Shown piece after piece: positions 19,480-30,472 of a DNA stretch of 64,000 nt. Origin of the DNA: Thermoplasmata archaeon (GTDB taxonomy: Archaea > Thermoplasmatota > Thermoplasmata > Lutacidiplasmatales > UBA184). The notes beneath the pieces are model-generated. The model ran no database searches. It saw nothing but the letters and a program-made list of their open reading frames with translations, and was not told the origin of the DNA. Each line of letters starts with the position of its first letter. Position 1 is the first letter of the stretch. The translations under genes were made by a program, and so were the position numbers. The stretch is from assembly GCA_021817605.1 (NCBI GenBank), contig JAKAUN010000009.1:1-64000 (forward strand). The letters run 5' to 3'.

Positions 19480-20157
19480 ATGGACCCGACGATCTCGCAC
19501 CCGGACTCGGTTGGTCGAATGAGTGAGGACCCGGACGACGCCCGAGTTTCCCCCTCGGAGGCCGCTGCTCCTACGAAGCCGCAAGCTGACGGGGAGGAGG
19601 CTCCCGATCTCGACGAGGAGGGGCGTTTCCGGGCCCGGGGGACGCTCTCCTACGCCGTCGTGGGGACCTACGTCTTCCTCCTCCTGTTCTTCGTCTACCT
19701 CTCCCGGTCCAGCTTTTTCGGCACGTTTGGCTGGACGCCGTACCTGCTCCTCGCGGTGACCGCCGTCTTCCTGGCGCGCTACCTCTCCACGACCTACACT
19801 ATCGACGACACCCGGCTGCGGGCTTGGCGCGTCCTCGGCGGGCGATCCGTCCCGCTCGAGGAGGTGCGGGCGATCGAGTACGCGAGCATGCGGGACCTCG
19901 TCCCCATCGGCGGGGGGCTCACGATGGGCTCGTGGGGATGGAGGGGTCATCTCTACAGCCCGTCGATCGGGGAGTTCGACTCGATCTATACCGACCCGGT
20001 CCGGGGCCTCCTCGTCACGGCGGGGGCCTACCCGCTCTACATCTCCCCGAAGGACCCCGAGGGGTTCGCGCGCGAGCTCTCGCGTCGCGTGCGCTCCTAC
20101 ACCGGACCGCTCTCCAAGGATGTCGGCAGCCCCGGGCCGGGCCGACCCGCTCAGTAG
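19480..20157 (+). CDS. Membrane protein with bacterial PH-like domain
   Basis: The 225-residue protein has an acidic N terminus and two membrane helices (YAVVGTYVFLLLFFVYL and PYLLLAVTAVFLARYL). A cytosolic domain follows with TYTIDDTRLRAWRVLGGRSV, EEVRAIEYA, GLLVTAGAYPLYISPKDPEGF and a final basic helix. This is the pattern of prokaryotic membrane-anchored PH-like domains. ATG 19480 follows a TATA-like box at 19429-19435; ATG 19519 is an alternative. The 3' end overlaps the convergent sulfur-carrier/E1 gene. Ligand unknown. Confidence 0.8.
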   Translation: MDPTISHPDSVGRMSEDPDDARVSPSEAAAPTKPQADGEEAPDLDEEGRFRARGTLSYAVVGTYVFLLLFFVYLSRSSFFGTFGWTPYLLLAVTAVFLARYLSTTYTIDDTRLRAWRVLGGRSVPLEEVRAIEYASMRDLVPIGGGLTMGSWGWRGHLYSPSIGEFDSIYTDPVRGLLVTAGAYPLYISPKDPEGFARELSRRVRSYTGPLSKDVGSPGPGRPAQ

Positions 20158-21617
20158 ACCGGCAGGTTCGGGTCGATCCGCTCGGCCCAGGCGTTGATGC
20201 CGCCGCGGAGGTTCCGCACGTTGGTGAAGCCGAGCTCGAGGAGAGTGCGGACGGCGTCCGCCGATCGGGCGCCGCTGCGGCAATAGAGGACGAGCTCGCG
20301 CGCCCGCGTGAGCTCGCTCATCCGCTCGGTGAGCTCGCCCTTCGGGATGGTGAGGGGTGCCCGGGAAAGCTGGCTGATCTCCCACTCCTCGGGCTCTCGG
20401 ACATCCACGAGGAGCGGAGGCTCCTCGCCCGCCAGGGCGTCCCGAAGCTCTTCAGGAGTAATCTCGGGGACTCCCGGGGACGCCGCTCCGGGAGGCGCCA
20501 CACCGCAGAACTGTAGGTAGTCTACCAGTCCCTTTTGGGTCGCCTTCGGCGAGCAGAGCACGCACTCCGGGTTCTTCGCGAGGGCGAGCTCCCGGAAGCT
20601 CATCGTGCCGGCGTCGTAGAGCAGGAGCCGGCCGACCAGAGGCTCGCCGAGTCCGAGGAGGATCTTGATCGCCTCGGTCGCCTGGAGCGCTCCGACCACG
20701 CCCGGGAGGACCCCGAGCACGCCGGCCTCCGCGCAGGACGGGACGAGGTCGGGAGGCGGAGGCTCGGGGTAGAGGCAGCGGTAGCACGGCCCCCGACGGG
20801 CGTCGAAGACGCTCACTTGGCCCTCGAAACGGTAGATCGACCCGTAGACGTTCGGTTTCCCCAGCAGCACGCAGGCGTCGTTGACGAGGTAACGTGTCGG
20901 GAAATTGTCCGTCCCGTCGACCACGAGGTCGTAGGGCCGCAGGACCTCCATCGCGTTGGTCGAGTCGAGCCGTCCGGCGTGCGGGACGATGGTGACGCCC
21001 GGGTTGAGCCCCTCGAGCCGTTCGCGAGCCGCCTCGAGCTTGGGCCGCCCGAGGTCGGCGGTCGAGTAGAGGACCTGGCGCTGCAGGTTCGACAGTTCGA
21101 CCGCGTCCAGATCGACCAGTCCGATCGTGCCGACCCCGGCCGCGGCGAGGTAGAGCGCCGCGGGCGCCCCGAGCCCACCGGTGCCGACCAGGAGGACCTT
21201 CGCGTTGCGCAGCGCCTTCTGGCCGGCGACGCCGACCTCGGGAAGGAGCAAGTGTCGGCTGTAGCGTCGCAGCTCCTCGGAGGTGAAGGCGCGTCCTCCC
21301 TCCCGGGGCGTTGCCCCCGGCGCCATCGTCCCGGAGGGGGCTCCGCCGGCGATCGCGGGAACGATCGACAGCACGTCCCCGTCCCGGACCGCGGTCTGGT
21401 CGCGCGCGAGGGTACGGACGTCCTTGTCGTTCAGGTAGACCGAGACAAAGTTGCGCAGGGCCCCGTCCGGCGAGAGCAGATGGCGCCGGAGCGCCGGGTG
21501 GGTCTCGGTGAGCGAGCGCAGCAGCGCCCCGACCGTTTCCCCCTCGACGAGGACCTCGGCGTGGCCGCCGGCAAATCCGCGCAGAGGCGTCGGCACCTTG
21601 ATCGGTATCCTTGCCAT
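20151..21617 (-). CDS. Fused CysO-like sulfur carrier - MoeB/E1 - rhodanese
   Basis: This 488-residue protein has three parts. Residues 1-92 are a ubiquitin-fold sulfur carrier with VYLNDKDVR and the end VPAIAGG (Gly-Gly at 91-92), very close to the VxGG end of mycobacterial CysO. Residues about 110-365 are a MoeB/ThiF-type adenylating domain with GTGGLGAPAALYLA, DGTDNFPTRYLVND and two Cys pairs (CYRC, CVLC) for zinc. Residues about 385-488 are a rhodanese with active loop CRSGARS. The E1 would adenylate the carrier tail and the rhodanese deliver sulfur as thiocarboxylate. The Gly-Gly is internal, followed by a linker, so cleavage would be needed to free it; a JAMM peptidase gene sits 21 bases upstream. 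Domain calls are firm, processing is inference. Confidence 0.93.
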   Translation of the reverse strand: MARIPIKVPTPLRGFAGGHAEVLVEGETVGALLRSLTETHPALRRHLLSPDGALRNFVSVYLNDKDVRTLARDQTAVRDGDVLSIVPAIAGGAPSGTMAPGATPREGGRAFTSEELRRYSRHLLLPEVGVAGQKALRNAKVLLVGTGGLGAPAALYLAAAGVGTIGLVDLDAVELSNLQRQVLYSTADLGRPKLEAARERLEGLNPGVTIVPHAGRLDSTNAMEVLRPYDLVVDGTDNFPTRYLVNDACVLLGKPNVYGSIYRFEGQVSVFDARRGPCYRCLYPEPPPPDLVPSCAEAGVLGVLPGVVGALQATEAIKILLGLGEPLVGRLLLYDAGTMSFRELALAKNPECVLCSPKATQKGLVDYLQFCGVAPPGAASPGVPEITPEELRDALAGEEPPLLVDVREPEEWEISQLSRAPLTIPKGELTERMSELTRARELVLYCRSGARSADAVRTLLELGFTNVRNLRGGINAWAERIDPNLPVY

Positions 21618-21638
21618 GATGAGCTCCCTCCGAACGGA

Positions 21639-22109
21639 TCAGGCGCCTCCCGACGCGACGGACGGGGGCGTCGTCTCGGTGGCGAGGGCGACGCGGACGA
21701 ACTCCCCGCGATCGGGATCGAGCTGGAAGGCTCCCACCTCGGGCGACGGGTCCCCCGCCGTCACGGAGAGGATCACGTAGGAGTACCAGGGCCAGGCGTG
21801 GTCCTGGTCGAAGCGGGACGGCCGGGCCGGCTGGTCCGGGTGTGAGTGGAAGAAGCCGCAGACCACCTCGCCCCGCTCGATCGCCCGGCGCTCGGCCTCG
21901 CGCAGCTGCTCGGCGGAGATGACGAAGCGACGGTGGCGCTCCTCGACCCGCTCGTTCGGGGCGAGGGCGACCGAGCCGATGGGCCGGGGGGAGAGCTCCA
22001 CCCGGTCCGCGGACGAGAAGAGGAAGCCGCAGCACTCCTCCGGATAGCTCTCGCGGGCGTAGCCCCGCATCTCCTCGAGGAGCGAGGACGGTACGGAGAG
22101 CCCCCTCAT
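21639..22109 (-). CDS. JAMM/MPN+ metallopeptidase, Mec+-like
   Basis: This 156-residue JAMM protein has all catalytic elements: Glu in YPEECCGFLF, and GFFHSHPDQPARPSRFDQD, a perfect H-x-H-x10-D zinc motif. Prokaryotic stand-alone JAMM enzymes such as Mec+ cut after the Gly-Gly of sulfur carriers, releasing cysteine from the CysO-cysteine adduct. The ATG overlaps the cysteine synthase stop (ATGA), and the fused carrier/E1 gene starts 21 bases downstream. Context strongly suggests action on that carrier, both to expose Gly-Gly and to free the amino acid. It is cytosolic, with no signal peptide. Confidence 0.93.
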   Translation of the reverse strand: MRGLSVPSSLLEEMRGYARESYPEECCGFLFSSADRVELSPRPIGSVALAPNERVEERHRRFVISAEQLREAERRAIERGEVVCGFFHSHPDQPARPSRFDQDHAWPWYSYVILSVTAGDPSPEVGAFQLDPDRGEFVRVALATETTPPSVASGGA

Positions 22110-23071
22110 GCCGTCGGCTCCTGCCCGGGGCTCCCGCCGCTGTCGGGCAGGACCGTGACCACGTAGGCGCCTTCGCTCCGGCCGCCGACCCGCAACGACG
22201 CGACGAGCGCCGCGGCGGAGGAAAGGCCCACCACGAGCCCCTCGTCACGGGCGAGGGCCGCGCGCAGCGCGACGGCTTCCTCGGTTGCCACGCGCTCGGT
22301 CCGGTCGACCAGCGCCTCGTCGTAGGTCGAGGGGCGTCGTGCGGTGGGGAGGTGCTTGAGGCCCTCGAGCGCGTGCATCGGCTCGTCCGGCTCCACTCCG
22401 ACCACTTGGATCGAGGCTTCCTGTTCCTTGAGAAAGCGTGCGGTCCCCGTGATCGTCCCGCCTGTTCCGACCCCACAGACCAGGTGCGTGAGGCGCCGGC
22501 GCGACTGGCGCCAGATCTCCGGACCCGTGGTCCGGTAGTGGGCGAGAGGGTTCTGGGGATTGTTGTACTGGTCGGCGAAGAAGTACCGCTCGGGGGCGGA
22601 CGCCGCCAGGGCGCGAGCCTCTTCCTGGGCGCCGTCGGTCCCGGCACCGGGATCGGTGAGGACCACGCTGGTCCCGAGGGCGCTCAGGCGCGCCAACCGT
22701 TCGGCGCTGGCGTTGCGAGGGACGAAGAGCGTGACCGAAAAGCCAAGACGCGCGCCGAGCATCGCGTAGGCGACCGCGGTGTTGCCGCTCGAAGCGTCGA
22801 CCAAGGTGCGGCCGGCACCGAGGTCCCCTGCCTCGATCGCCGCACGCACGATGGCAAGGGCCGCGCGGTCCTTGACCGAGCCGCTGGGATTCGTCGCCTC
22901 GAGCTTGCCCCACAGCTCGAAGGCTCCGCCGTGGCGAGCGACCAGGCGGCGCAGCGGAACGAGCGGGGTGTTGCCGACGACGGCCAGAAGCGGGTCGTCC
23001 AAGAGCTCGGAGGCCCGCGGAGAGGCCCCCCCGAAGGACGTGGTCAGCCGAGCTGGATCAGATGCGCGCAC
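22106..23071 (-). CDS. PLP-dependent cysteine synthase (CysK/CysM family)
   Basis: This enzyme of about 321 residues replaces the beta-substituent of an activated serine with sulfide or a carrier thiocarboxylate. It shows VGNTPLVPLRR, the PLP lysine in NPSGSVKDRAAL, the DASSGNTAVAYA substrate loop and the phosphate loop CGVGTGGTITGTARFL. The operon with a carrier/E1 protein and a JAMM peptidase matches the CysM type that uses a protein thiocarboxylate. GTG 23071 overlaps the regulator's end by 28 bases and gives normal family length. Longer starts would run deep into the regulator; a CTG overlapping its stop (23047) is another possibility. Confidence 0.9.
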   Translation of the reverse strand: MRASDPARLTTSFGGASPRASELLDDPLLAVVGNTPLVPLRRLVARHGGAFELWGKLEATNPSGSVKDRAALAIVRAAIEAGDLGAGRTLVDASSGNTAVAYAMLGARLGFSVTLFVPRNASAERLARLSALGTSVVLTDPGAGTDGAQEEARALAASAPERYFFADQYNNPQNPLAHYRTTGPEIWRQSRRRLTHLVCGVGTGGTITGTARFLKEQEASIQVVGVEPDEPMHALEGLKHLPTARRPSTYDEALVDRTERVATEEAVALRAALARDEGLVVGLSSAAALVASLRVGGRSEGAYVVTVLPDSGGSPGQEPTA

Positions 23072-23688
23072 CGGGACCCCCCTCGTCCGATGGAGTCCTG
23101 AAGGTCGACTCCCACCTCGCCGAGGAGGGCCTCCGTGAGGTGCTTGTCGAAGATGTCGCAGAGGAGGAACGGATGCGTGAGCGCGCTGCGGCGGAAGACA
23201 CAGTTCGCGCGGAGAACGCGCCACCGTCCGTCCGGGCTCTTCTCGACCATCGCCCGGAAGCCGAGACGGTTGAGCAGCACCACCAGGTTGTGCGCCTTCT
23301 CTTCGTCGGTCGCCCCGGGAGGGATGTCGCGGGCGACGAGTCGGGCGAGGCGCTCGGCCGCGCGCGCGAAGAGCGCGCCGACGTACCCTTCTCCCTCGCC
23401 GGAGAGGAGCTCCTCGACGATCGCGTCGAGCATGAGATCGTACTTCTTCGGGAAGAGTTCCTGTCCCCGGCCGGTGAGCGAGAAGCGCTTTCGCGGTCGC
23501 CCGACGCCCTCGCGATGGAAGGTTGGGACGACCAGGCCCTTCTCCTCCATCCGTTCGAGGTGGCCCCGCGCAGCGCTCTCCTGGATCCCCAGCACCAAGG
23601 CGAGGTCCCTTGCGGTGCGGGGCGATTCGGCCAACTGCTCGAGGATCTTCCCGCGGGTTCCTTCGAAGGTTTCCAGCTCGGCCGCCAT
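23044..23688 (-). CDS. SufR-like winged-helix regulator with C-terminal cysteines
   Basis: This 214-residue protein has an N-terminal winged helix-turn-helix (ILEQLAESPRTARDLALVLG, AARGHLERMEEKGLV and VGRPRKRFSLTGRG). Its C-terminal domain has Cys in ANCVFRRSA, LLCDIFDKH and SRCAHLI, placed like the Fe-S ligands of SufR, which represses suf genes when holding a cluster. It is divergent to sufC and heads the cysteine-synthesis operon, so it likely reads Fe-S status and controls both sides. ATG 23688 is used because the longer start at 23733 falls inside the promoter element. Regulation is inferred from family and position. Confidence 0.85.
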   Translation of the reverse strand: MAAELETFEGTRGKILEQLAESPRTARDLALVLGIQESAARGHLERMEEKGLVVPTFHREGVGRPRKRFSLTGRGQELFPKKYDLMLDAIVEELLSGEGEGYVGALFARAAERLARLVARDIPPGATDEEKAHNLVVLLNRLGFRAMVEKSPDGRWRVLRANCVFRRSALTHPFLLCDIFDKHLTEALLGEVGVDLQDSIGRGGSRCAHLIQLG

Positions 23689-23722
23689 TTGCGTGGTCCG
23701 ACCCCGCGCTACGCGGTGGGGA

Positions 23723-23734
23723 GATTTACACACC
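23723..23734 (+). promoter_or_regulatory. Candidate SufR operator, sufR/sufC intergenic
   Basis: GATTTACACACC occurs here and again at 29676-29687 before sufD. On the minus strand it begins 8 bases after the TTTAAA box, between that box and the expected sufR start. Seen from sufC it lies just upstream of the TATA box. A bound repressor could block both promoters. The exact repeat and spacing are seen; SufR binding is inferred. Confidence 0.6.
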
Positions 23735-23774: not shown

Positions 23775-24557
23775 ATGGAAGGCACGAAGCTCTCGACGCC
23801 GCACGTCCTTCAGGTCGAGAATCTGCACGTGGAGGTCGCCGGAAAGGAGATTCTCCGCGGGGTCAACCTCACGCTCAAGAGCGGAGAGCTCACGGCGCTC
23901 ATGGGACCGAACGGCTCGGGGAAGAGCACCCTCGCCTACGCGCTCATGGGTCATCCGAAGTACAAGGTGACCGCGGGTCGGGCGCTGCTCGACGGCAAGG
24001 ATCTGCTCACGATGCCGGTCGACCAGCGCTCGCGGGCGGGGCTCTTCCTAGGCTTCCAGTACCCGCAGGAGGTCTCGGGCCTCTCGCTCTCGAAGTTCCT
24101 CTGGACGACCTACATGCAGCGCCACACGGCGCAGACCGCCGACGCGGCCCGCTTCGATAGGGAGCTCAAGACCCATCTCGGCTACCTCGGGATGGACGAT
24201 GCGTTGCTCAAGCGTTCGCTCAACGAAGGGTTCTCCGGCGGGGAGAAGAAGCGGGTCGAGGTCCTCCAGATGGCGACGCTCACGCCGGTCTTCTCGATCC
24301 TGGACGAGCCGGATTCCGGTCTCGACATCGACGCGGTGAAGGCGGTCGGGGAGACGGTGGCCAAGCTCCACCGACCCGACGCCGGGATCCTGGTGATCAC
24401 GCACTACCAGCGGATCCTCAAGTACCTCAAGCCGGATCGCGTGCACGTCATGGTCGACGGCCTGATCGCCCTCTCGGGCGGCCGCGAACTCGCCGAAGAG
24501 CTCGAGGCAAAGGGTTACGACTGGGTTCGCGTCGGGGTTCCGGGGACGTCCGGGTAG
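23775..24557 (+). CDS. sufC: SufC, Fe-S assembly ATPase
   Basis: This 260-residue ABC-type ATPase drives the SufBCD scaffold that builds Fe-S clusters. It has Walker A GPNGSGKSTLAYALMGH, Q-loop GFQYPQEVSG, signature FSGGEKKRVEVLQM, Walker B SILDEPDSGLDID and H-loop VITHYQRIL. The SufC-specific PDSGLD and GEKKR elements are intact. The start follows a strong TATA box and appears leaderless. Next are sufS (28 bases later) and sufB; sufD lies apart on the other strand. Confidence 0.97.
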   Translation: MEGTKLSTPHVLQVENLHVEVAGKEILRGVNLTLKSGELTALMGPNGSGKSTLAYALMGHPKYKVTAGRALLDGKDLLTMPVDQRSRAGLFLGFQYPQEVSGLSLSKFLWTTYMQRHTAQTADAARFDRELKTHLGYLGMDDALLKRSLNEGFSGGEKKRVEVLQMATLTPVFSILDEPDSGLDIDAVKAVGETVAKLHRPDAGILVITHYQRILKYLKPDRVHVMVDGLIALSGGRELAEELEAKGYDWVRVGVPGTSG

Positions 24558-24585
24558 GACGCTCCCCCGTCGGGGAGGTCGGGCG

Positions 24586-25845
24586 GTGGGACTCGAGGCG
24601 TGTCGGGGCGATTTCCCGATCCTCTCCCGCGCCACGGGCGGCCATCCTCTGATCTACCTCGACTCGGCGGCGACCTCCCAGAAACCGCGCTCCGTCCTCG
24701 ACGCCGAGGAAGGCTTCTACGCGCGGACCAACGCGAACGTCCACCGGGGGGTCTACGAGCTCAGCGTCGAGGCGACCGACGCCTACGAGGCCGCCCGCGC
24801 CCGGACCGCTAGGTTCCTGGGCGCGAAGGACCCGAACGAGGTCGTTTTCGTCCGGGGGACGACCGAGGCGCTCAACCTCCTCGCGACAAGCCTCGGACAA
24901 TCGGTCCTCGAGCGGGGCGACCGGGTCGTCGCCACGATCATGGAGCACCACTCGAACCTCGTCCCCTGGCACTTCCTGCGGGAGCACGCCGGCATCCAGA
25001 TCGACTTTGTCGACATCGACGACGAGGGACGGCTGCGGCTCGAGGAGCTCGACCGCTACCTCGCCGCCGGCCGAGTTAAGGTCGTCACACTCACCCACGT
25101 CTCCAACGTCCTCGGCACCGTGAACCCTGTCCGGGAGATCGCGGAGAAGGCGCACGCGCACGGCGCCCTCGTCGTGCTCGACGCGGCGCAGTCCGCCCCG
25201 CACCGCCGACTCGACGTCGCGGAGCTGGGCGTCGACTTCCTCGCTTTTTCCGGCCACAAGATGCTCGGCCCGATGGGCATCGGCGCCCTGTGGGGAAAGG
25301 CCGAGCTGCTCGCCAAGCTGCCGCCGTACATGGGCGGGGGCGAGATGATCGACCAGGTCCGCACCGATGGGGCGAGCTACCGCGAACCTCCCCAGCGGTT
25401 CGAGGCGGGGACGCCGAACGTCGGCGGCGCGATCGCGCTCGGGGCGGCGATCGACTACCTCGAGCGGGTCGGCTGGGACGAGCTGAGGACGCACGAGCGG
25501 CGGCTCCTCGAGCGGCTTCTCCAGGGAGCCCGCGAGAGGGTCGGGGGGAAGGTGAAGGTCTTCGGCCCCCACGAGACTCGGGACCGGGAGGCCGTGGTCT
25601 CCTTCGCTCTCCAAGGCGTGCATCCCCACGACGTGGCGAGCCTTCTGGATGCCGAGGGGATCTGCGTGCGCGCCGGACACCACTGCGCCCAGCCCCTCAT
25701 GCAGCGGCTCGGCGTCCCGGCGCTTACCCGGGCGAGCCCTTACCTCTACAACACCGAGTCCGAGATCGACCGGCTCTTCGACGCGCTCGAAAAGGTCGAC
25801 CGGCTCTTTGCCGGGGAGAAGCTCCCCACGGGCACAGCCCGCTAG
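24586..25845 (+). CDS. sufS: SufS, group II cysteine desulfurase
   Basis: The 419-residue PLP enzyme takes sulfur from cysteine as persulfide for Fe-S assembly. It has VIYLDSAATSQKP-like LIYLDSAATSQKP, TNANVHRGVY, VVLDAAQSAPH, the PLP lysine in FSGHKMLGPMGIG and the catalytic Cys in RAGHHCAQPLM. The GTG start is 28 bases after the sufC stop. Its sulfur acceptor is probably the SufU protein encoded at 30080. Cysteine supply would come from the divergent operon. Confidence 0.96.
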   Translation: MGLEACRGDFPILSRATGGHPLIYLDSAATSQKPRSVLDAEEGFYARTNANVHRGVYELSVEATDAYEAARARTARFLGAKDPNEVVFVRGTTEALNLLATSLGQSVLERGDRVVATIMEHHSNLVPWHFLREHAGIQIDFVDIDDEGRLRLEELDRYLAAGRVKVVTLTHVSNVLGTVNPVREIAEKAHAHGALVVLDAAQSAPHRRLDVAELGVDFLAFSGHKMLGPMGIGALWGKAELLAKLPPYMGGGEMIDQVRTDGASYREPPQRFEAGTPNVGGAIALGAAIDYLERVGWDELRTHERRLLERLLQGARERVGGKVKVFGPHETRDREAVVSFALQGVHPHDVASLLDAEGICVRAGHHCAQPLMQRLGVPALTRASPYLYNTESEIDRLFDALEKVDRLFAGEKLPTGTAR

Positions 25846-25985
25846 CGGCGCACCGCCGCTCCCGCCGGAGCGACACTCCGCTCGTGCACGGCCCTCGGGA
25901 GGTGTAGCCTTCTCACCTACACCGACCGCGGGGGGCCACTCTCCACCGATAGGGGGGACGGAGTAGCGCGGGAAGCGACCTCTGA

Positions 25986-25993
25986 TTTAAATA
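25986..25993 (+). promoter_or_regulatory. TATA box for sufB
   Basis: TTTAAATA lies 38 bases before the sufB ATG, in a 178-base gap after sufS. sufB therefore has its own promoter in addition to any read-through. The 12-base element near sufC and sufD is not present here. Confidence 0.7.
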
Positions 25994-26023
25994 CGCCGCG
26001 GTGCTGGAATTAGCTGGGCGACC

Positions 26024-27436
26024 ATGGCGCAGACGGCTTCTGAGATCAGTCCGCTCGACTACACCCGCTACGACTTCAAGGACCCGGAGACCTACCGGGT
26101 CCGCATCCCGAAGGGCCTTTCCCGGGACGTCGTGCGGAAGATCAGCGCCTTCAAGCACGAGCCGGATTGGATGCTGGAGTACCGCCTGCGGGCCTACGAC
26201 CATTTCGTCTCACGGCCGATGCCCGACTGGGGACCCGACCTCTCGGACATCGATTTCGACGCCTACACCTACTACGCCGACCCGCTCGGCGACGAGAAGC
26301 CGAAGCGCAGTTGGGACGACCTTCCCGCGGACATCAAGAACACCTTCGAGAAGCTCGGGATCCCGAAGGCCGAGCGGGAGTTCTTTGGAGGGGTCGGCGC
26401 GCAGTACGACAGCGGGACCGTCTACCACAAGATCCGCGAGGACCTCGCGGCGAAGGGGGTCATCTTCTGCGACACGGATACCGCCGTCCGCGAGCACACG
26501 GACATCGTGCGCAAGTACTTCGGCAAGATCGTCCCCTACAACGACAACAAGTTCGCCGCGCTCAACAGCGCGGTCTGGTCGGGCGGGAGCTTCGTCTACG
26601 TCCCGCCGGGGGTGGACGCCGGGATCCCGCTCCAGGCGTACTTCCGCATCAACGCGAAGAATGTCGGGCAGTTCGAGCGCACGCTCATCATCGCGGACCG
26701 GGGAGCCAAGGTCCATTATCTCGAGGGGTGCACTGCCCCGGTGTACTCGACCGATTCGCTCCACGCGGCGGTGGTCGAGGTCATTTCTGAGCCGTATGCG
26801 AAGCTACGGTACACCACCGTCCAGAACTGGTCGAAGAACGTCTACAACCTGGTCACCAAGCGCGCCGTGGCCCAGGAGGGCGCGCTCGTCGAGTGGGTCG
26901 ACGGCAACATGGGTTCGAAAGTGACGATGAAGTACCCGAGCGTCTACCTCAAAGGGCGCGGCGCGCGGGCCGACATCCTCTCGGTCGCCTTCGCGAGCGA
27001 GGGCCAGGTCATCGACTCGGGAGCGAAGGCGGTCCACTCGGCGCCGGATACCTCGAGCAAGATCATCGCGAAATCGATCGCCATCCGCGGCGGGCAGACC
27101 AGCTACCGAGGCCTCCTCCATGTCGCCCCCGGAGCGACGGGCGTCAAGGCCGCGGTACGCTGCGACGCGCTGCTTCCCGACGAGCAGGGCCGCTCGGACA
27201 CCTACCCCTACAACGAGATCCACGAGGAGGACGCCACCATCACCCACGAGGCCGTCGTCGGCAAGATCGGGGAGGAGCAGATCTTCTATCTCATGAGCCG
27301 CGGCCTCTCCGAGTCGGACGCGATCCACCTCATCCTGATGGGGTTCCTGGCGGAGTTCGCCAAGGAGCTTCCCGTCGACTACGCCCTCGAGCTCAACCGG
27401 CTCATCCAGCTCGAGATGTCCGGCGCGGTCGGGTAG
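26024..27436 (+). CDS. sufB: SufB, Fe-S cluster scaffold subunit
   Basis: The 470-residue SufB forms the scaffold with SufC and SufD. It has GISKAEREFFGGVGAQYDS-like IPKAEREFFGGVGAQYDS, the FVYVPPGVDAGIPLQAYFRIN block, AKVHYLEGCTAP, VDGNMGSKVTMKYPSVYL and the C-terminal RCDALLPDEQGRSDTYPYNE region, with Cys matching the sulfur-accepting position. Length and order of motifs are typical. It is cytosolic. Confidence 0.97.
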   Translation: MAQTASEISPLDYTRYDFKDPETYRVRIPKGLSRDVVRKISAFKHEPDWMLEYRLRAYDHFVSRPMPDWGPDLSDIDFDAYTYYADPLGDEKPKRSWDDLPADIKNTFEKLGIPKAEREFFGGVGAQYDSGTVYHKIREDLAAKGVIFCDTDTAVREHTDIVRKYFGKIVPYNDNKFAALNSAVWSGGSFVYVPPGVDAGIPLQAYFRINAKNVGQFERTLIIADRGAKVHYLEGCTAPVYSTDSLHAAVVEVISEPYAKLRYTTVQNWSKNVYNLVTKRAVAQEGALVEWVDGNMGSKVTMKYPSVYLKGRGARADILSVAFASEGQVIDSGAKAVHSAPDTSSKIIAKSIAIRGGQTSYRGLLHVAPGATGVKAAVRCDALLPDEQGRSDTYPYNEIHEEDATITHEAVVGKIGEEQIFYLMSRGLSESDAIHLILMGFLAEFAKELPVDYALELNRLIQLEMSGAVG

Positions 27437-27574
27437 GGCTGTCGGCCCTTCCTCGACCGGGGCCCGGCCGGGGTCCTCCGCCACGGCGCGGGCGATAACG
27501 CAGTCAACGGGCAGCCGAAACGTCTAGCGGTGGGTAAAAAGAGCCGGCTGGCCCCTGGGCGACCGAGGTCGACG

Positions 27575-27808
27575 ATGCGACTTATTCGGCACGATGCGAC
27601 GGGACCTGCGCTCATCGAGGTCGGGGGATCCACCGTCGCGGTCTGCCAATGCGGTCTCAGCCGCAACAAGCCCTTCTGCGACGGCACCCACGCAAAGACC
27701 CGCGACGAGGAGCCGGGGAAGACGTACGTCTACGATGCGGACCACAACCGGGTCATAGTGGAGGACATGTTCCCCACGCCGGGGAAGAAGTTCGTCCATA
27801 AGCCCTGA
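27575..27808 (+). CDS. CDGSH-type iron-sulfur protein
   Basis: This 77-residue protein contains CQCGLSRNKPFCDGTH, the full C-x-C-x2-S-x3-P-x-C-D-G-T-H ligand set of a CDGSH [2Fe-2S] site (three Cys, one His). There is one motif only, as in minimal archaeal and bacterial members. Family members carry electrons or transfer clusters. Its place next to sufB suggests cluster trafficking. ATG 27575 gives the normal compact length, with a weak A-rich box about 38 bases upstream; GTG 27530 would extend it. Confidence 0.92.
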   Translation: MRLIRHDATGPALIEVGGSTVAVCQCGLSRNKPFCDGTHAKTRDEEPGKTYVYDADHNRVIVEDMFPTPGKKFVHKP

Positions 27809-27882
27809 ATGCGTCGCAGCGGCTAGCCGCCGCGCCCCGGTCTCTCCGTGGCTATCGCGAGAGGCGACCGCGGCGCCGTCGG

Positions 27883-28209
27883 CTAGCTCTTGGTCTTCCG
27901 GGAGCGGGGCACCGTGGGTCCTTCCGTGTGGGACTTCACAAGGTCGATGACGGCCAGCAGCACGGCGTAGGCGAGGTTGGCCCGCCGCCGGAGATCCTCC
28001 CGGCTCGCGGGCGAGGAGTCCCCCAGAAGAGCCCCGGCGCTCCGCAACAGGTCGGCCGCGGTCTCGAGGCTCGCCGGTTGCAGCACCCTTCCCCGGGGGT
28101 GGAGGACGAGCTCCTCGGTCTCGGCGAGGTCGGCCCGGAGCGAGCGCACGAGCTCCTCCAGCTCCGCGTCCGGTAGCTTAGAACCGTCCAGCACGAGCGG
28201 AGGGGTCAT
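27883..28209 (-). CDS. Hypothetical helical protein downstream of sufD
   Basis: This 108-residue protein looks largely helical: LPDAELEELVRSLRADLAETE, SLETAADLLRSAGALLG and EDLRRRANLAYAVLLAVIDL, with a Lys/Arg tail. It has no Cys, signal or obvious active site. It starts 69 bases after sufD on the same strand, so may be co-transcribed with it. I do not recognise the family. Confidence 0.6.
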   Translation of the reverse strand: MTPPLVLDGSKLPDAELEELVRSLRADLAETEELVLHPRGRVLQPASLETAADLLRSAGALLGDSSPASREDLRRRANLAYAVLLAVIDLVKSHTEGPTVPRSRKTKS

Positions 28210-28278
28210 GGCGGCCCCCCTCCCGGAGCTTGGGGAGCCGTTAGCGTTTCGGCCCGGCCGTTGGGGGGCATCGTGCCA

Positions 28279-29673
28279 CTAGCGGAGCTTGGCGTCAAAC
28301 CGCCACTCCGGGGCGCCCTCGGTCCCGGTGACCTCGAGGGGAGGCAGAGCGGGGAACTCGGGCCCGGTCCAGGGGACCTCGCGTCCGTCCCATCGGGCGG
28401 CAAGAAGCGGGTAGAGCAGCTCGCGCAGTCCGGCGACGGGAGCACGCTCGTGCACGTAGGCGAGGAAGCCCTCCGCGATAAGACGGACCGCGGCCGGTTG
28501 GGAGAAGCCCCGGCTTTCCAGGTAGAAGACCTTCTCCGGGTCGACGGGGGCGACCGAGGTCGAGTGGGTCGCCTTCACGTCGCGGCAAAGGATCTCGAGG
28601 ATCGGGATGGTGTCCGAGCGGCTCCCCTTGGAGAGGAGCATGGCGTGCTCGGAGACGTAGGCGACCGTCTTGCGCGCCTCGTGCTCGATGCGAACGAGCC
28701 CCCGGCTCATCCCCCGGGCCTGGTCGCGGAAGACTCCCCGGGTGATCGATTGGCCATGGGTATCGGTCGACGTGTGGGTGAGATCGACCGAGCTGTCGAA
28801 CGACTGGTCGCCGGCGCCGAAGAACGTCTGGAGGTCCGTGACCTCCGAGCCGGCACCGGCCAGGGTCGACTGGTTGCGCACCTTGGTCCGAAACCCTCCC
28901 ATGCCGTTCCAGAGCCATGCGATGCGGGAGTTGGCCCCGGTGGTCGCCCGACGGCGGTAGATCGACACCGTCCGCATATCGGGGCTGTGGACCCCGAGGT
29001 AGACGACCTTCGCGTCGGCGCCGGTGGTGAGGGAGGTGGAGGAGGCGTGCAGTCGCTGGCCTTCGGGCACCTCGGGGGTGGAGAAGACCTCCTCGGTGAA
29101 GAGCAGCTGCGAGCCCACCCCGCAACGCACGGACCGATGGATGCTGATCGCCTCGTGCGGGAGGGAAAGCACCGCGTAATCCGCCACGCGGACCGGGGCG
29201 CGGTAGCGGTCCGGCAGCTCGAGCTCGTAGCCGCGGTTGACGAGGGCGCTACCGAGCGCGGAGAGGCGGTCCGTCGCCTCCTCCTCCTTCCCGAGGAAAG
29301 CGACGATGTCGGCCTCCCCCCCTGACCAGATCTCTTCGAAGGCACGGAAGCGGACCCCCGCAGAGACGAGCTCAGGGGGGACGAAGCCCCGGGTCCCGCT
29401 CGCGTCGTGGACCACTCGGACCGTCCCCTCGTTTTGCGGCGGCAGGGCGACCGCCGGCCCCGACGCCGCGGGGTCGAGCCCGGCAAGGTCGACGTTGGAG
29501 AAGTAGCCGTACCCCCGGTAGAGGGGATTCGGCTCGAGGGGAAGCTTGAGGAACCGGCTGTGGGCCTCCCGACGTTCTCGGGCAGTGGAGCTGGGGTCGC
29601 CGGCCTTCTCGGAGAGGGCGGCAACCGCTTCCGCCGAGAGCCAAGCGTCGTACCGTGGGGCGGCTGAGGCCAT
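28279..29673 (-). CDS. sufD: SufD, Fe-S scaffold subunit
   Basis: This 464-residue SufB paralog has a divergent N-terminal half. The conserved beta-helix core includes GTRGFVPPELVSAGVRF, GADAKVVYLGVHS, SRIAWLWNGMGGFRTKVRNQ and THTSTDTHGQSITRGVFRDQ, and ends KVFYLESRGFSQPAAVRLIAEG. It pairs with SufB and SufC. It sits alone, convergent to sufB, with its own promoter. ATG 29673 falls about 26 bases after a TTATAA box, suggesting a leaderless transcript, and the candidate SufR element lies between box and start. Confidence 0.94.
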   Translation of the reverse strand: MASAAPRYDAWLSAEAVAALSEKAGDPSSTARERREAHSRFLKLPLEPNPLYRGYGYFSNVDLAGLDPAASGPAVALPPQNEGTVRVVHDASGTRGFVPPELVSAGVRFRAFEEIWSGGEADIVAFLGKEEEATDRLSALGSALVNRGYELELPDRYRAPVRVADYAVLSLPHEAISIHRSVRCGVGSQLLFTEEVFSTPEVPEGQRLHASSTSLTTGADAKVVYLGVHSPDMRTVSIYRRRATTGANSRIAWLWNGMGGFRTKVRNQSTLAGAGSEVTDLQTFFGAGDQSFDSSVDLTHTSTDTHGQSITRGVFRDQARGMSRGLVRIEHEARKTVAYVSEHAMLLSKGSRSDTIPILEILCRDVKATHSTSVAPVDPEKVFYLESRGFSQPAAVRLIAEGFLAYVHERAPVAGLRELLYPLLAARWDGREVPWTGPEFPALPPLEVTGTEGAPEWRFDAKLR

Positions 29674-29675
29674 TG

Positions 29676-29702
29676 GATTTACACACCCGGTTGTGGTTAT
29701 AA
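29676..29702 (-). promoter_or_regulatory. sufD promoter with candidate SufR operator
   Basis: TTATAA at 29697-29702 is the TATA box. The element read as GGTGTGTAAATC on this strand (29687-29676) begins 9 bases later, right at the expected transcript start. An ACAC-N5-TGTG inverted repeat (29683-29695) overlaps it. The same 12 bases at nearly the same spacing occur at sufR. Confidence 0.6.
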
Positions 29703-30079
29703 GTTGTCGCGCCTGGGGAGCCCTCCGTGGCGATCCGCCGCGGACCCGCGTTCCCTCCGTCCCGCGTTCCAACGGCGGCTCTGTCGTATCGGTCGGAGCC
29801 CGCGAGCGTCGTCTAAAAGGGACGCCATGTCGGGCGACGAGGGGCAGTTGCCAGGAACCTACTATCTACCGGTCTTCTCCGGCACCCCGGTGCCGGCGGG
29901 CTCACGCGGCTCCATGCGTGCCTCTCGGAGGGCAACTGTCCGGACTCGGGCCCCGCCGAAAGGCTCGTCCCGTGGTTGGTCCGGGCTGCAGCGTTCCCGG
30001 GCGGGCTCTCCCCTCTCGCGGAAGGCGTTTAGTACGTCCGCTACGGTGGGACGAGCACCGGACTCCGGGCCGGGCTCAG
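29703..30079. other. Intergenic between sufD and sufU
   Basis: About 375 bases. A short frame from ATG 29827 has little support and is left out. A TATA-like gtttagta at 30027-30034 is suitably placed for sufU. Confidence 0.4.
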
Positions 30080-30472
30080 ATGGCGTACGACATGTACCAG
30101 GAGGTCATCCTCCAGCACTACCGCGCGCCCCGAAATTTTGGCCCCCTCGAGGGAGCCACCTACGCGGGCGAGGAGGCGAATCCCCTCTGCGGCGACCGCA
30201 TCACCTTCCGCCTGAAGGTCGACCCCGGGACCGGGCGCGTGGAGGCAGCCAAGTTCGAGGGCGACGGCTGCGCGATCAGCGTGGCGAGCGCCTCGATGCT
30301 CTCCGAGAAGATCGCGGGGAAGACGCTCGACGAGCTCCGAGGCATCGGCCAGGACGAGGTTCTCAAGCAACTCGGGATACCCCTCTCGCCGGTGCGCGTG
30401 AAGTGCGCGCTCACGGGGTTCGCGGCCCTCGGCAAGGCGCTGCAGGCGAGCGCCTCGCACCCCCCGGCCTAG
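30080..30472 (+). CDS. sufU: SufU/IscU-type sulfur acceptor
   Basis: The 130-residue IscU-fold protein has the three conserved Cys: NPLCGDRITF, GDGCAISVASASML and VRVKCALTGF. The insertion between the second and third Cys fits SufU, which accepts persulfide sulfur from SufS. The start MAYDMYQEVILQHYRAPRNFG is typical. The frame is open far upstream without protein character, so ATG 30080 is chosen. It completes the suf set in this window. Confidence 0.94.
   Translation: MAYDMYQEVILQHYRAPRNFGPLEGATYAGEEANPLCGDRITFRLKVDPGTGRVEAAKFEGDGCAISVASASMLSEKIAGKTLDELRGIGQDEVLKQLGIPLSPVRVKCALTGFAALGKALQASASHPPA

What the first reader, a model, noticed from the sequence alone, without database searches (positions are those of the whole stretch)
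20151..23071. Cysteine synthesis operon with the sulfur carrier fused to its own E1 and rhodanese
One polypeptide (20151-21617) joins a CysO-like ubiquitin-fold carrier, a MoeB/E1 and a rhodanese. Next to it are a JAMM peptidase with a perfect H-x-H-x10-D and a CysK/CysM enzyme, overlapping by 4 bases. Mycobacteria make cysteine with separate CysO, CysM, Mec+ and MoeZ; here the same parts form one archaeal operon with carrier and activator fused. The carrier's Gly-Gly (codons at 21342-21347) is internal, so it must either be cleaved by the JAMM enzyme to free a usable tail or work by a different chemistry. A self-processing ubiquitin-like system making cysteine would be new in this form.
Basis: partly seen in the sequence, partly recalled or inferred. 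Interest (0 to 1): 0.88.

Follow-up and report, generated by a model that had tools for sequence, protein, structure and literature searches.

The report
Fused sulfur-carrier precursor in cysteine operon
An archaeon makes its sulfur-carrying protein as the front part of the enzyme that charges it, and comparison of many genomes suggests that a neighbouring protease must cut the two apart before they can help to make cysteine; the parts and the fusion are already known, but this link and the evidence for the cut look new.

Summary
In detail: SufR-like, CysM-like, JAMM and a CysO-like/E1/rhodanese fusion lie head to tail on the minus strand. The fusion is not private to this archaeon: it is in much of its Thermoplasmata genus and in Acidobacteriota, Gemmatimonadota, Bacteroidota, Chloroflexota and others, and a 2024 survey lists it for archaea as a MoaD-MoeBR fusion. 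The internal Gly-Gly is kept in 51 of 51 fused survey loci. The next residue is Ala/Ser in 60 of 81 non-redundant linkers (27.5 expected) and never Pro (10.4 expected). The linker is predicted disordered. In one archaeal clade without the operon JAMM the stop codon stands directly after Gly-Gly (3 of 3). Bacterial unfused carriers beside a JAMM end 1-8 residues after Gly-Gly in 16 of 17. JAMM stays with the fusion in 12 loci without the operon CysM. No serine acetyltransferase was found, so O-phosphoserine is the likelier CysM substrate. This is the only MoeB-type E1 found in the genome and probably serves MoaD too. New variant of a known kind; the cut is inferred, not shown.

The parts
20151..21617 (-). 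fusion: CysO-like carrier - MoeB/MoeZ-type E1 - rhodanese, 488 aa
   Evidence: the same fusion in 51 survey loci, window included, and 61 of 80 wider loci
21342..21602 (-). ubiquitin-fold carrier domain (ThiS family, residues 6-92)
   Evidence: Pfam 1.7e-13; best PDB match of this part is 3dwg_C, 3.7e-15, deposited as 'cfp10A'; that this chain is M. tuberculosis CysO is recalled
21342..21347 (-). internal Gly91-Gly92, inferred cleavage after Gly92
   Evidence: Gly-Gly in 51 of 51 fused survey loci (50, the 51st read)
21288..21341 (-). variable, predicted disordered linker, residues 93-110, begins with Ala93
   Evidence: AlphaFold pLDDT under 50 at 95-98 and 100-104; Ala/Ser excess and absence of Pro at +1
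20562..21263 (-). E1 (ThiF/MoeB) adenylation domain
   Evidence: Pfam 3.8e-85; one of only two ThiF-family hits of the genome, the other being distant
20181..20459 (-). rhodanese domain with CRSGARS loop (Cys446)
   Evidence: Pfam 7.4e-17; Cys446 invariant in the 34 aligned fused proteins
21639..22109 (-). JAMM metalloprotease, 156 aa
   Evidence: Prok-JAB 2.2e-20; best PDB match 2kcq, 4.7e-25
21807..21848 (-). JAMM motif H88-x-H90-x7-S98-x2-D101
   Evidence: sequence; the motif is in 125 of 128 JAMM hits of the fetched loci, the other 3 being partial matches (some loci are held twice)
22106..23071 (-). CysM-like PLP enzyme, GTG start
   Evidence: Lys at the column of Arg220 of M. tuberculosis CysM
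23044..23688 (-). SufR-like winged-helix regulator, first gene of the unit
   Evidence: SufR_cyano 46.5 bits, cut-off 178.8; found beside the operon in many genus loci that reach far enough, but absent from the 9-10 kb stretches L038, L040 and L041

Best explanation
The fusion is a precursor. The neighbouring JAMM protease cuts after Gly92, giving a free CysO-like carrier with a Gly-Gly tail and a separate E1-rhodanese. The E1 then adenylates the tail, the rhodanese Cys446 supplies sulfur and a thiocarboxylate forms. CysM adds this sulfur to the aminoacrylate made from O-phosphoserine, leaving cysteine on the carrier tail, and the same JAMM releases the cysteine (its Mec+ role). The released E1-rhodanese also charges the genome's separate MoaD. 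Shown: gene content, the conservation pattern at the junction, and one clade in which a stop codon replaces the junction where the JAMM is gone. Inferred: every chemical step, the cut included.
For: Gly-Gly at the junction in 51 of 51 fused survey loci, followed by a linker of very variable sequence and length (7-27 aa). Position +1 after Gly-Gly: no Pro in 81 non-redundant linkers (10.4 expected) and 60 Ala/Ser (27.5 expected), reached in 0 of 20,000 draws from the linkers' own first eight positions. Linker predicted disordered between well-modelled domains. In the three genomes with an unfused carrier the stop codon follows Gly-Gly directly and SufR is followed at once by the carrier, with no operon JAMM; they are one clade nested among fused lineages. 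JAMM is kept in 12 fused loci (11 genomes) without the operon CysM; of 5 independent CysM contrasts on supported branches, JAMM is unchanged in 3.5 on average. In bacteria, unfused carriers beside a JAMM end 1-8 residues after Gly-Gly in 16 of 17. In 29 of 50 fused loci no ATG, GTG or TTG lies in frame between Gly-Gly and the eighth residue of the E1 match. [quoted passage not shown] cysE: no hit in this genome, while the 14 controls all ring, 8 of them over the cut-off; a phosphoglycerate-dehydrogenase hit, 3.3e-92, below that family's cut-off.
Against: No biochemical proof. Fusion and JAMM states agree in 54 of 54 scored rows (5 changes each), but four of those five changes are loss of the whole carrier together with JAMM and CysM, which any role of the JAMM predicts; only the split clade tests the fusion itself. 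Three contrasts lie on supported branches, sign test p 0.25. Bacterial unfused loci keep the JAMM as well (17 of 19), so its presence alone is explained by the Mec+ role; L173 has a bare Gly-Gly tail and a JAMM, L168 a bare tail with a JAMM elsewhere in its genome. Of 6 fused loci with neither JAMM nor CysM in the fetched stretch, 4 genomes have a strong JAMM elsewhere, one (L123) only a 7.8e-4 hit and one (L147) none; of 2 fused loci with CysM but no JAMM, L174 has only a 30-bit partial JAMM and weak hits elsewhere, and L117 (the same contig as survey genome G104) a best genome hit of 2.0e-7. Capped bacterial tails do not share the Ala/Ser preference at +1. A passage in PMC8832034 cites work in which HvJAMM1 did not need the diglycine to cut linear fusions. 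In CysM-less lineages the sulfur acceptor is unknown. Some genus genomes lack this E1 altogether, one of them 95% complete (G026). The genome has a cystathionine beta-synthase-like and Cys/Met-metabolism pair, another possible route to cysteine.
Confidence: 0.72

Rival explanations
1. The fusion works uncut: the tethered carrier presents its Gly-Gly to the E1 in another way, and the JAMM only releases cysteine from carriers.
For: The E1 and rhodanese residues listed as invariant are intact. JAMM is also found with unfused bacterial carriers (17 of 19).
Against: The only other ThiS-family hit of the genome is MoaD beside MoaE. E1s of this family act on a C-terminal Gly carboxylate (established knowledge), and fused MoaX and SAMP1-MoaE need cutting (PMC4326299, PMC4443979, passages). 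Invariant Gly-Gly with no Pro at +1 fits a scissile bond. Stop codon directly after Gly-Gly where the operon JAMM is gone.
Confidence: 0.08
2. It is a molybdenum-cofactor protein (MoaD-MoeBR), as the archaeal fusion survey filed it, and the CysM neighbour is incidental.
For: PMC11237513 names it so (passages). NCBIfam's MoeB model PRK08762 passes its cut-off (481 against 449 bits). The E1 is the only MoeB-type E1 found. Seven of seven genomes that lost the carrier kept the E1-rhodanese and at least one other ThiS-family hit.
Against: A separate MoaD-MoaE pair is present. The carrier's best PDB match is the CysO chain. The operon holds CysM in 28 of 50 scored genus rows and a CysM-like gene lies in 68 of 80 wider loci.
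Confidence: 0.1
3. The carrier is a ubiquitin-like protein modifier (SAMP-like) and the JAMM a desampylase; the cysteine link is secondary.
For: NCBIfam gives SAMP1 at 54.6 bits (cut-off 60) for this carrier and 60.2, just over, for a bacterial relative (L150), and desamp_Halo at 53 bits (cut-off 130) for the JAMM. CysM has been lost repeatedly while carrier and JAMM stay, so those lineages need another acceptor.
Against: The window's own scores are below the family cut-offs. No E2-like gene was seen in the operon. CysM in many loci.
Confidence: 0.12
4. Free E1-rhodanese is made by an internal start in the linker, so no cut is needed to free it.
For: The window linker holds Met98, and 21 of 50 linkers have an in-frame ATG, GTG or TTG.
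Against: 29 of 50 have none. Internal initiation would not free the carrier's tail in any case.
Confidence: 0.05

Closest known systems
CysO-CysM-Mec+-MoeZR cysteine pathway of mycobacteria
   Same: CysO-like carrier, CysM-like enzyme, JAMM and E1-rhodanese together; E1 probably shared with MoaD (PMC3227635, passages)
   Different: carrier and E1-rhodanese are one polypeptide here, so the tail must be exposed first; Lys instead of Arg at the Arg220 column
Operon types 4b-4d of Iyer et al. 2006 (PMC1779556): ThiS/MoaD, E1-rhodanese, JAB, cysteine synthase
   Same: the same four parts; [quoted passage not shown]
   Different: in the passages read the carrier of the 4b-4d operons is a separate gene, and the Ubl-ThiF fusions are not said to bear a rhodanese
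MoaD-MoeBR fusion, cluster 356.3 (14 assemblies), in the archaeal fusion survey PMC11237513
   Same: the same domain order; with moeBR itself (356.2) mainly in unclassified Euryarchaeota and Poseidoniales; transfer from Acidobacteria suggested (passages)
   Different: filed under molybdopterin; 'cysteine synthase' does not occur in the text and 'JAMM' only in a reference title; cut and stop-codon pattern not treated in the passages read
Ubl-E1-TBP fusions of Thaumarchaeota (Makarova and Koonin 2010, PMC2948915)
   Same: Ubl fused to an E1, said to be shared with bacteria (passages)
   Different: a different C-terminal domain; JAB said to be rarely near Ubl genes in archaea
Capped carriers cut by JAMM (QbsE/QbsD, PtmS2/PtmS1)
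   Same: residues after Gly-Gly that a JAMM-type protease removes to expose the tail (PMC6006322, passages; the name QbsE is recalled)
   Different: the caps of PtmS2 and PtmS3 are 2 and 1 residues; here the cap is the whole E1-rhodanese
MoaD-MoaE fusions cut after Gly-Gly (MoaX, the DRJAMM substrate, engineered SAMP1-MoaE)
   Same: internal Gly-Gly cut, by a JAMM in two cases (PMC8832034, PMC4443979) and by an unidentified protease in MoaX (PMC4326299) (passages)
   Different: partner is MoaE, part of the sulfur-accepting synthase; here it is the carrier's own activating enzyme

Membership tests
CysO/CysM/Mec+ cysteine pathway | ubiquitin-fold carrier related to CysO, with Gly-Gly | tested here: met
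   (3dwg_C, 3.7e-15; identity as CysO recalled)
CysO/CysM/Mec+ cysteine pathway | carrier ends at Gly-Gly as encoded | tested here: not met
   Gly-Gly is internal; it would be met only after a cut
CysO/CysM/Mec+ cysteine pathway | JAMM with complete metal motif in the operon | tested here: met
CysO/CysM/Mec+ cysteine pathway | CysM that takes O-phosphoserine | tested here: inconclusive
   Lys at the Arg220 column in 104 of 111 aligned CysM rows, some loci held twice; no cysE hit; phosphoglycerate-dehydrogenase-like gene present; the role of Arg220 is recalled
CysO/CysM/Mec+ cysteine pathway | E1 with C-terminal rhodanese and its Cys | tested here: met
   NCBIfam MoeZ model PRK07878 1.2e-143 but below its cut-off, MoeB model PRK08762 over its cut-off
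CysO/CysM/Mec+ cysteine pathway | carrier thiocarboxylate used by CysM | not testable with these tools
   needs enzymology
capped carriers processed by JAMM | residues after Gly-Gly, with a JAMM in the same operon | tested here: met
capped carriers processed by JAMM | cap removed by that JAMM | not testable with these tools
   indirect support only
MoaD (molybdopterin synthase small subunit) | encoded with MoaE | tested here: not met
   a different MoaD stands beside the MoaE found
SAMP / ubiquitin-like modifier | score above family cut-off | tested here: not met
   SAMP1 54.6 against cut-off 60; JAMM as desampylase 53 against 130; a bacterial relative, L150, reaches 60.2
SAMP / ubiquitin-like modifier | conjugation to lysines | not testable with these tools
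   needs proteomics

The most novel reading that the evidence does not exclude
The JAMM works as a post-translational stop codon. Once a dedicated JAMM is in the operon, the stop between carrier and E1 becomes dispensable, so fusion and fission flip back and forth (10 changes on a tree of 88 E1 rows, at least 7 forced by supported branches) and the carrier's cap ranges from one residue to the whole activating enzyme, in one genome even with the protease in the same chain. The uncut precursor would be a zymogen of the whole sulfur relay, so that one cut switches on cysteine synthesis and, through the shared E1, molybdopterin synthesis, under a SufR-like iron-sulfur regulator.
Probability: 0.3. 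Interest if true: 0.72.

Novelty: new variant of a known kind. Interest (0 to 1): 0.52.

Why it matters
It ties a fusion that has been filed under molybdopterin to protein-borne cysteine synthesis, and offers a natural case in which a stop codon seems to stand in for a JAMM protease. It gives a simple, testable example of a ubiquitin-like carrier made as a precursor with its own E1, in several phyla that are otherwise hard to study, and it warns annotation pipelines that call these proteins MoeB.

Tried and rejected
Internal start in the linker as the general way to free the E1: rejected, 29 of 50 linkers have no ATG/GTG/TTG. Assembly or sequencing artefact: rejected by repeated occurrence. 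JAMM explained by cysteine release alone: not enough within the genus, because JAMM persists in 12 fused loci (11 genomes) without the operon CysM; it may be enough in bacteria, where JAMM goes with CysM whether or not the carrier is fused, so that only the tails after Gly-Gly speak there. The tree with far outgroups had long branches that met; the tree used for counts left them out. States for that count were assigned by me. Rows dropped before it: 9 of 63 (L013, L017, L029, L030, L050, L051, L066, L081, L082), because JAMM, CysM or fusion state ran off the contig or lay on another contig. At least five loci of the wider scan are contigs already held from the survey (L095, L096, L097, L098, L117, by equal contig length); exact duplicate linkers were removed before the shuffle test (111 to 106, then those of 9 or more residues, 103, and 81 non-redundant). 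Two scans of the wrong frame or strand gave nothing and were not repeated: L177:583-1236 for the genome's second JAMM and L175:1501-2412 plus for the phosphoglycerate-dehydrogenase-like gene.


Full report
What is there. On the minus strand of the window four genes follow one another: a SufR-like regulator (23688-23044), a CysM-like PLP enzyme (23071-22106), a JAMM protease (22109-21639) and a 488-residue fusion (21617-20151) of a ubiquitin-fold carrier, a MoeB/MoeZ-type E1 and a rhodanese. CysM and JAMM overlap by 4 bases, SufR and CysM by 28 (if CysM starts at its GTG), and 21 bases separate JAMM from the fusion. The carrier's best match among solved structures is 3dwg_C, 3.7e-15 (the chain is CysO by recall). 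The JAMM has the complete H-x-H-x7-S-x2-D motif. The Gly-Gly lies at residues 91-92, inside the chain.

The rest of the genome (1.75 Mb, 16 contigs, completeness 100). Only one other ThiS-family protein was found, a MoaD beside a MoaE, and only one other ThiF-family protein, a distant, larger E1. The fused E1 is therefore the only MoeB-type E1 found and probably charges MoaD too. No serine acetyltransferase was found (cysE model: 0 of 1; the 14 controls all ring, 8 over the cut-off), while a phosphoglycerate-dehydrogenase-like gene exists (3.3e-92, below that family's cut-off). A second PLP enzyme with CBS domains stands before a Cys/Met-metabolism enzyme, a probable transsulfuration pair. In 104 of 111 aligned CysM rows, some loci held twice, a Lys stands at the column of Arg220 of M. 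tuberculosis CysM (that Arg220 is the O-phosphoserine residue is recalled).

Survey of near relatives (121 genomes: the window's own, 72 of its genus, 3 of its order, 45 of its class). I examined the loci of the best matches, not every genome; some genus genomes lack this E1, G026 (95% complete) among them. Of 50 scored genus rows, 28 have CysM, JAMM and fusion together, 12 have fusion and JAMM without the operon CysM, 3 have carrier and E1-rhodanese as two frames parted by one stop codon with neither operon JAMM nor operon CysM (G018, G024, G028), and 7 have the E1-rhodanese alone; those 7 genomes all keep at least one other ThiS-family hit. Two further families of the class have CysM with the fusion and a JAMM next to it or some kilobases away, except G104, where no JAMM lies on the 9.8-kb contig and the best genome hit is 2.0e-7. 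In one genome, G062, JAMM, carrier, E1 and rhodanese are one 703-residue frame.

Signs of a cut at the Gly-Gly. All 51 fused loci of the survey keep Gly-Gly (50, the 51st, a truncated one, read). What follows is a linker of 7-27 residues with no conserved sequence, except for its first position: over 81 non-redundant linkers (survey and wider scan together) it is Ala or Ser in 60 (27.5 expected) and Pro in none (10.4 expected), against draws from the linkers' own first eight positions, 0 of 20,000 as extreme. A Pro just after the bond is what most proteases cannot take (established knowledge). In 29 of 50 linkers there is no in-frame ATG, GTG or TTG, so an internal start cannot be general. AlphaFold with 34 fused sequences models carrier, E1 and rhodanese well (mean pLDDT 89.3, pTM 0.83) and stretches 95-98 and 100-104 of the linker below 50. 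The JAMM motif is kept in 125 of 128 JAMM hits, the other three being partial matches, CysM-less genomes included.

The natural experiment. In the three unfused archaeal genomes the stop codon follows the second Gly codon directly (TAA, TAG, TAG), exactly where the JAMM would cut, and the carrier follows SufR at once, with no JAMM between. G018 has only the other, genus-wide Prok-JAB type elsewhere; G024 and G028, 85% and 64% complete, have no Prok-JAB hit. On the E1-rhodanese trees they form one clade nested among fused lineages, with fused families outside, so the split is derived and counts once. The carrier was lost together with JAMM and CysM in about four further lineages. Over 54 scored rows (9 of 63 dropped) fusion and JAMM agree everywhere, 5 changes each, whereas CysM changes 9 times; but four of the five are losses of the whole carrier, which any role of the JAMM would predict. 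Three contrasts lie on supported branches, all in agreement, sign test p 0.25. That JAMM is kept in 12 fused loci without CysM is the other half of the argument.

Beyond the archaea. Of the 80, 61 are fused (49 with JAMM and CysM in the fetched stretch, 4 with JAMM only, 2 with CysM only, 6 with neither) and 19 split (16 with both, 1 JAMM only, 1 CysM only, 1 neither). Split carriers beside a JAMM end 1-8 residues after Gly-Gly in 16 of 17; the exception L173 ends at Gly-Gly. Of the two split loci without a JAMM nearby, L168 ends at Gly-Gly (a strong JAMM lies elsewhere in its genome) and L133 has two extra residues (a 1.4e-6 hit elsewhere). Of the 6 fused loci with neither gene nearby, 4 genomes have a strong JAMM elsewhere, one a 7.8e-4 hit, one none; of the 2 with CysM only, L174 shows a 30-bit partial JAMM and weak hits elsewhere, and L117 is G104 again. 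Fused and split states change 10 times on a tree of 88 E1 sequences (87 labelled), at least 7 forced by supported branches. In bacteria the JAMM thus accompanies CysM whether or not the carrier is fused, as its Mec+ role predicts; it is the residues after Gly-Gly that point to processing. The tails do not share the Ala/Ser preference at +1.

Mechanism. The best reading is a precursor: JAMM cuts after Gly92; E1 and rhodanese charge the free tail; CysM passes the sulfur to an O-phosphoserine-derived intermediate; JAMM releases cysteine; the E1 also charges MoaD. The gene pattern is shown; each chemical step is inferred from the families. In CysM-less lineages the acceptor of the sulfur is unknown.

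What is known. Iyer et al. 2006 (PMC1779556, passages) describe operons with carrier, E1-rhodanese, JAB and cysteine synthase, suggest that JAB may cut off a Ubl fused to another protein, and note one Ubl-ThiF fusion beside a cysteine synthase in Pelobacter propionicus. Makarova and Koonin 2010 (PMC2948915, passages) report Ubl-E1-TBP fusions in Thaumarchaeota. A 2024 survey of archaeal fusions (PMC11237513, passages) lists MoaD-MoeBR fusions (14 assemblies) and suggests transfer from Acidobacteria, under molybdopterin. JAMM cuts of MoaD-MoaE-type fusions are reported for HvJAMM1 (PMC4443979, passages) and DRJAMM (PMC8832034, passages); MoaX is cut at Gly82/Ser83 by an unidentified protease (PMC4326299, passages); capped carriers typically require a protease (PMC6006322, passages). 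I read passages only, of all these papers. The searches listed no paper that I could see to link the carrier-E1-rhodanese fusion with CysM and JAMM; the library lacks most subscription journals.

Verdict. Observation confirmed; interpretation partly supported; a new variant of a known kind, of moderate interest because the cut is now sharply predicted and cheap to test.

Noticed in passing
window 23044-23733 and 23775-30472: The cysteine operon stands back to back with a SUF-type cluster (SufC-, SufS-, SufB-, SufD- and SufU-like frames, named by eye), and a SufR-like regulator heads the cysteine operon; SufR lies beside this operon in many genus loci that reach far enough, not in L038, L040 and L041.
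   Followed up: partly
L055:3089-5197 (genome G062): JAMM, carrier, E1 and rhodanese in one 703-residue open frame (Pfam Prok-JAB 42-149, ThiS 210-296, ThiF 332-565, Rhodanese 603-694). One case, so an assembly error is possible.
   Followed up: partly
L178:2980-4964 (own genome C16): A second E1-like frame of 641 aa with weak PADLOC E1-E2 and BilD matches, overlapping a 165-aa frame that looks by eye like an E2-type protein but has no Pfam or PADLOC hit; possibly a ubiquitin-like conjugation system.
   Followed up: partly
12 loci without operon CysM, e.g. L028, L033, L056, L058: Fused carrier and JAMM kept although the operon CysM is gone; what receives the carrier's sulfur there is unexplained.
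   Followed up: no
G000:C12:136416-136724 and many genus genomes: A second, weaker Prok-JAB match (E about 1e-9 to 1e-13) lies elsewhere in many genus genomes; its role was not examined.
   Followed up: no
carrier tails in L135, L163, L167, L138: Several acidobacterial carriers end in Cys-containing caps after Gly-Gly (SSCCR, TSCRL, CCR, RPLRCACS).
   Followed up: no
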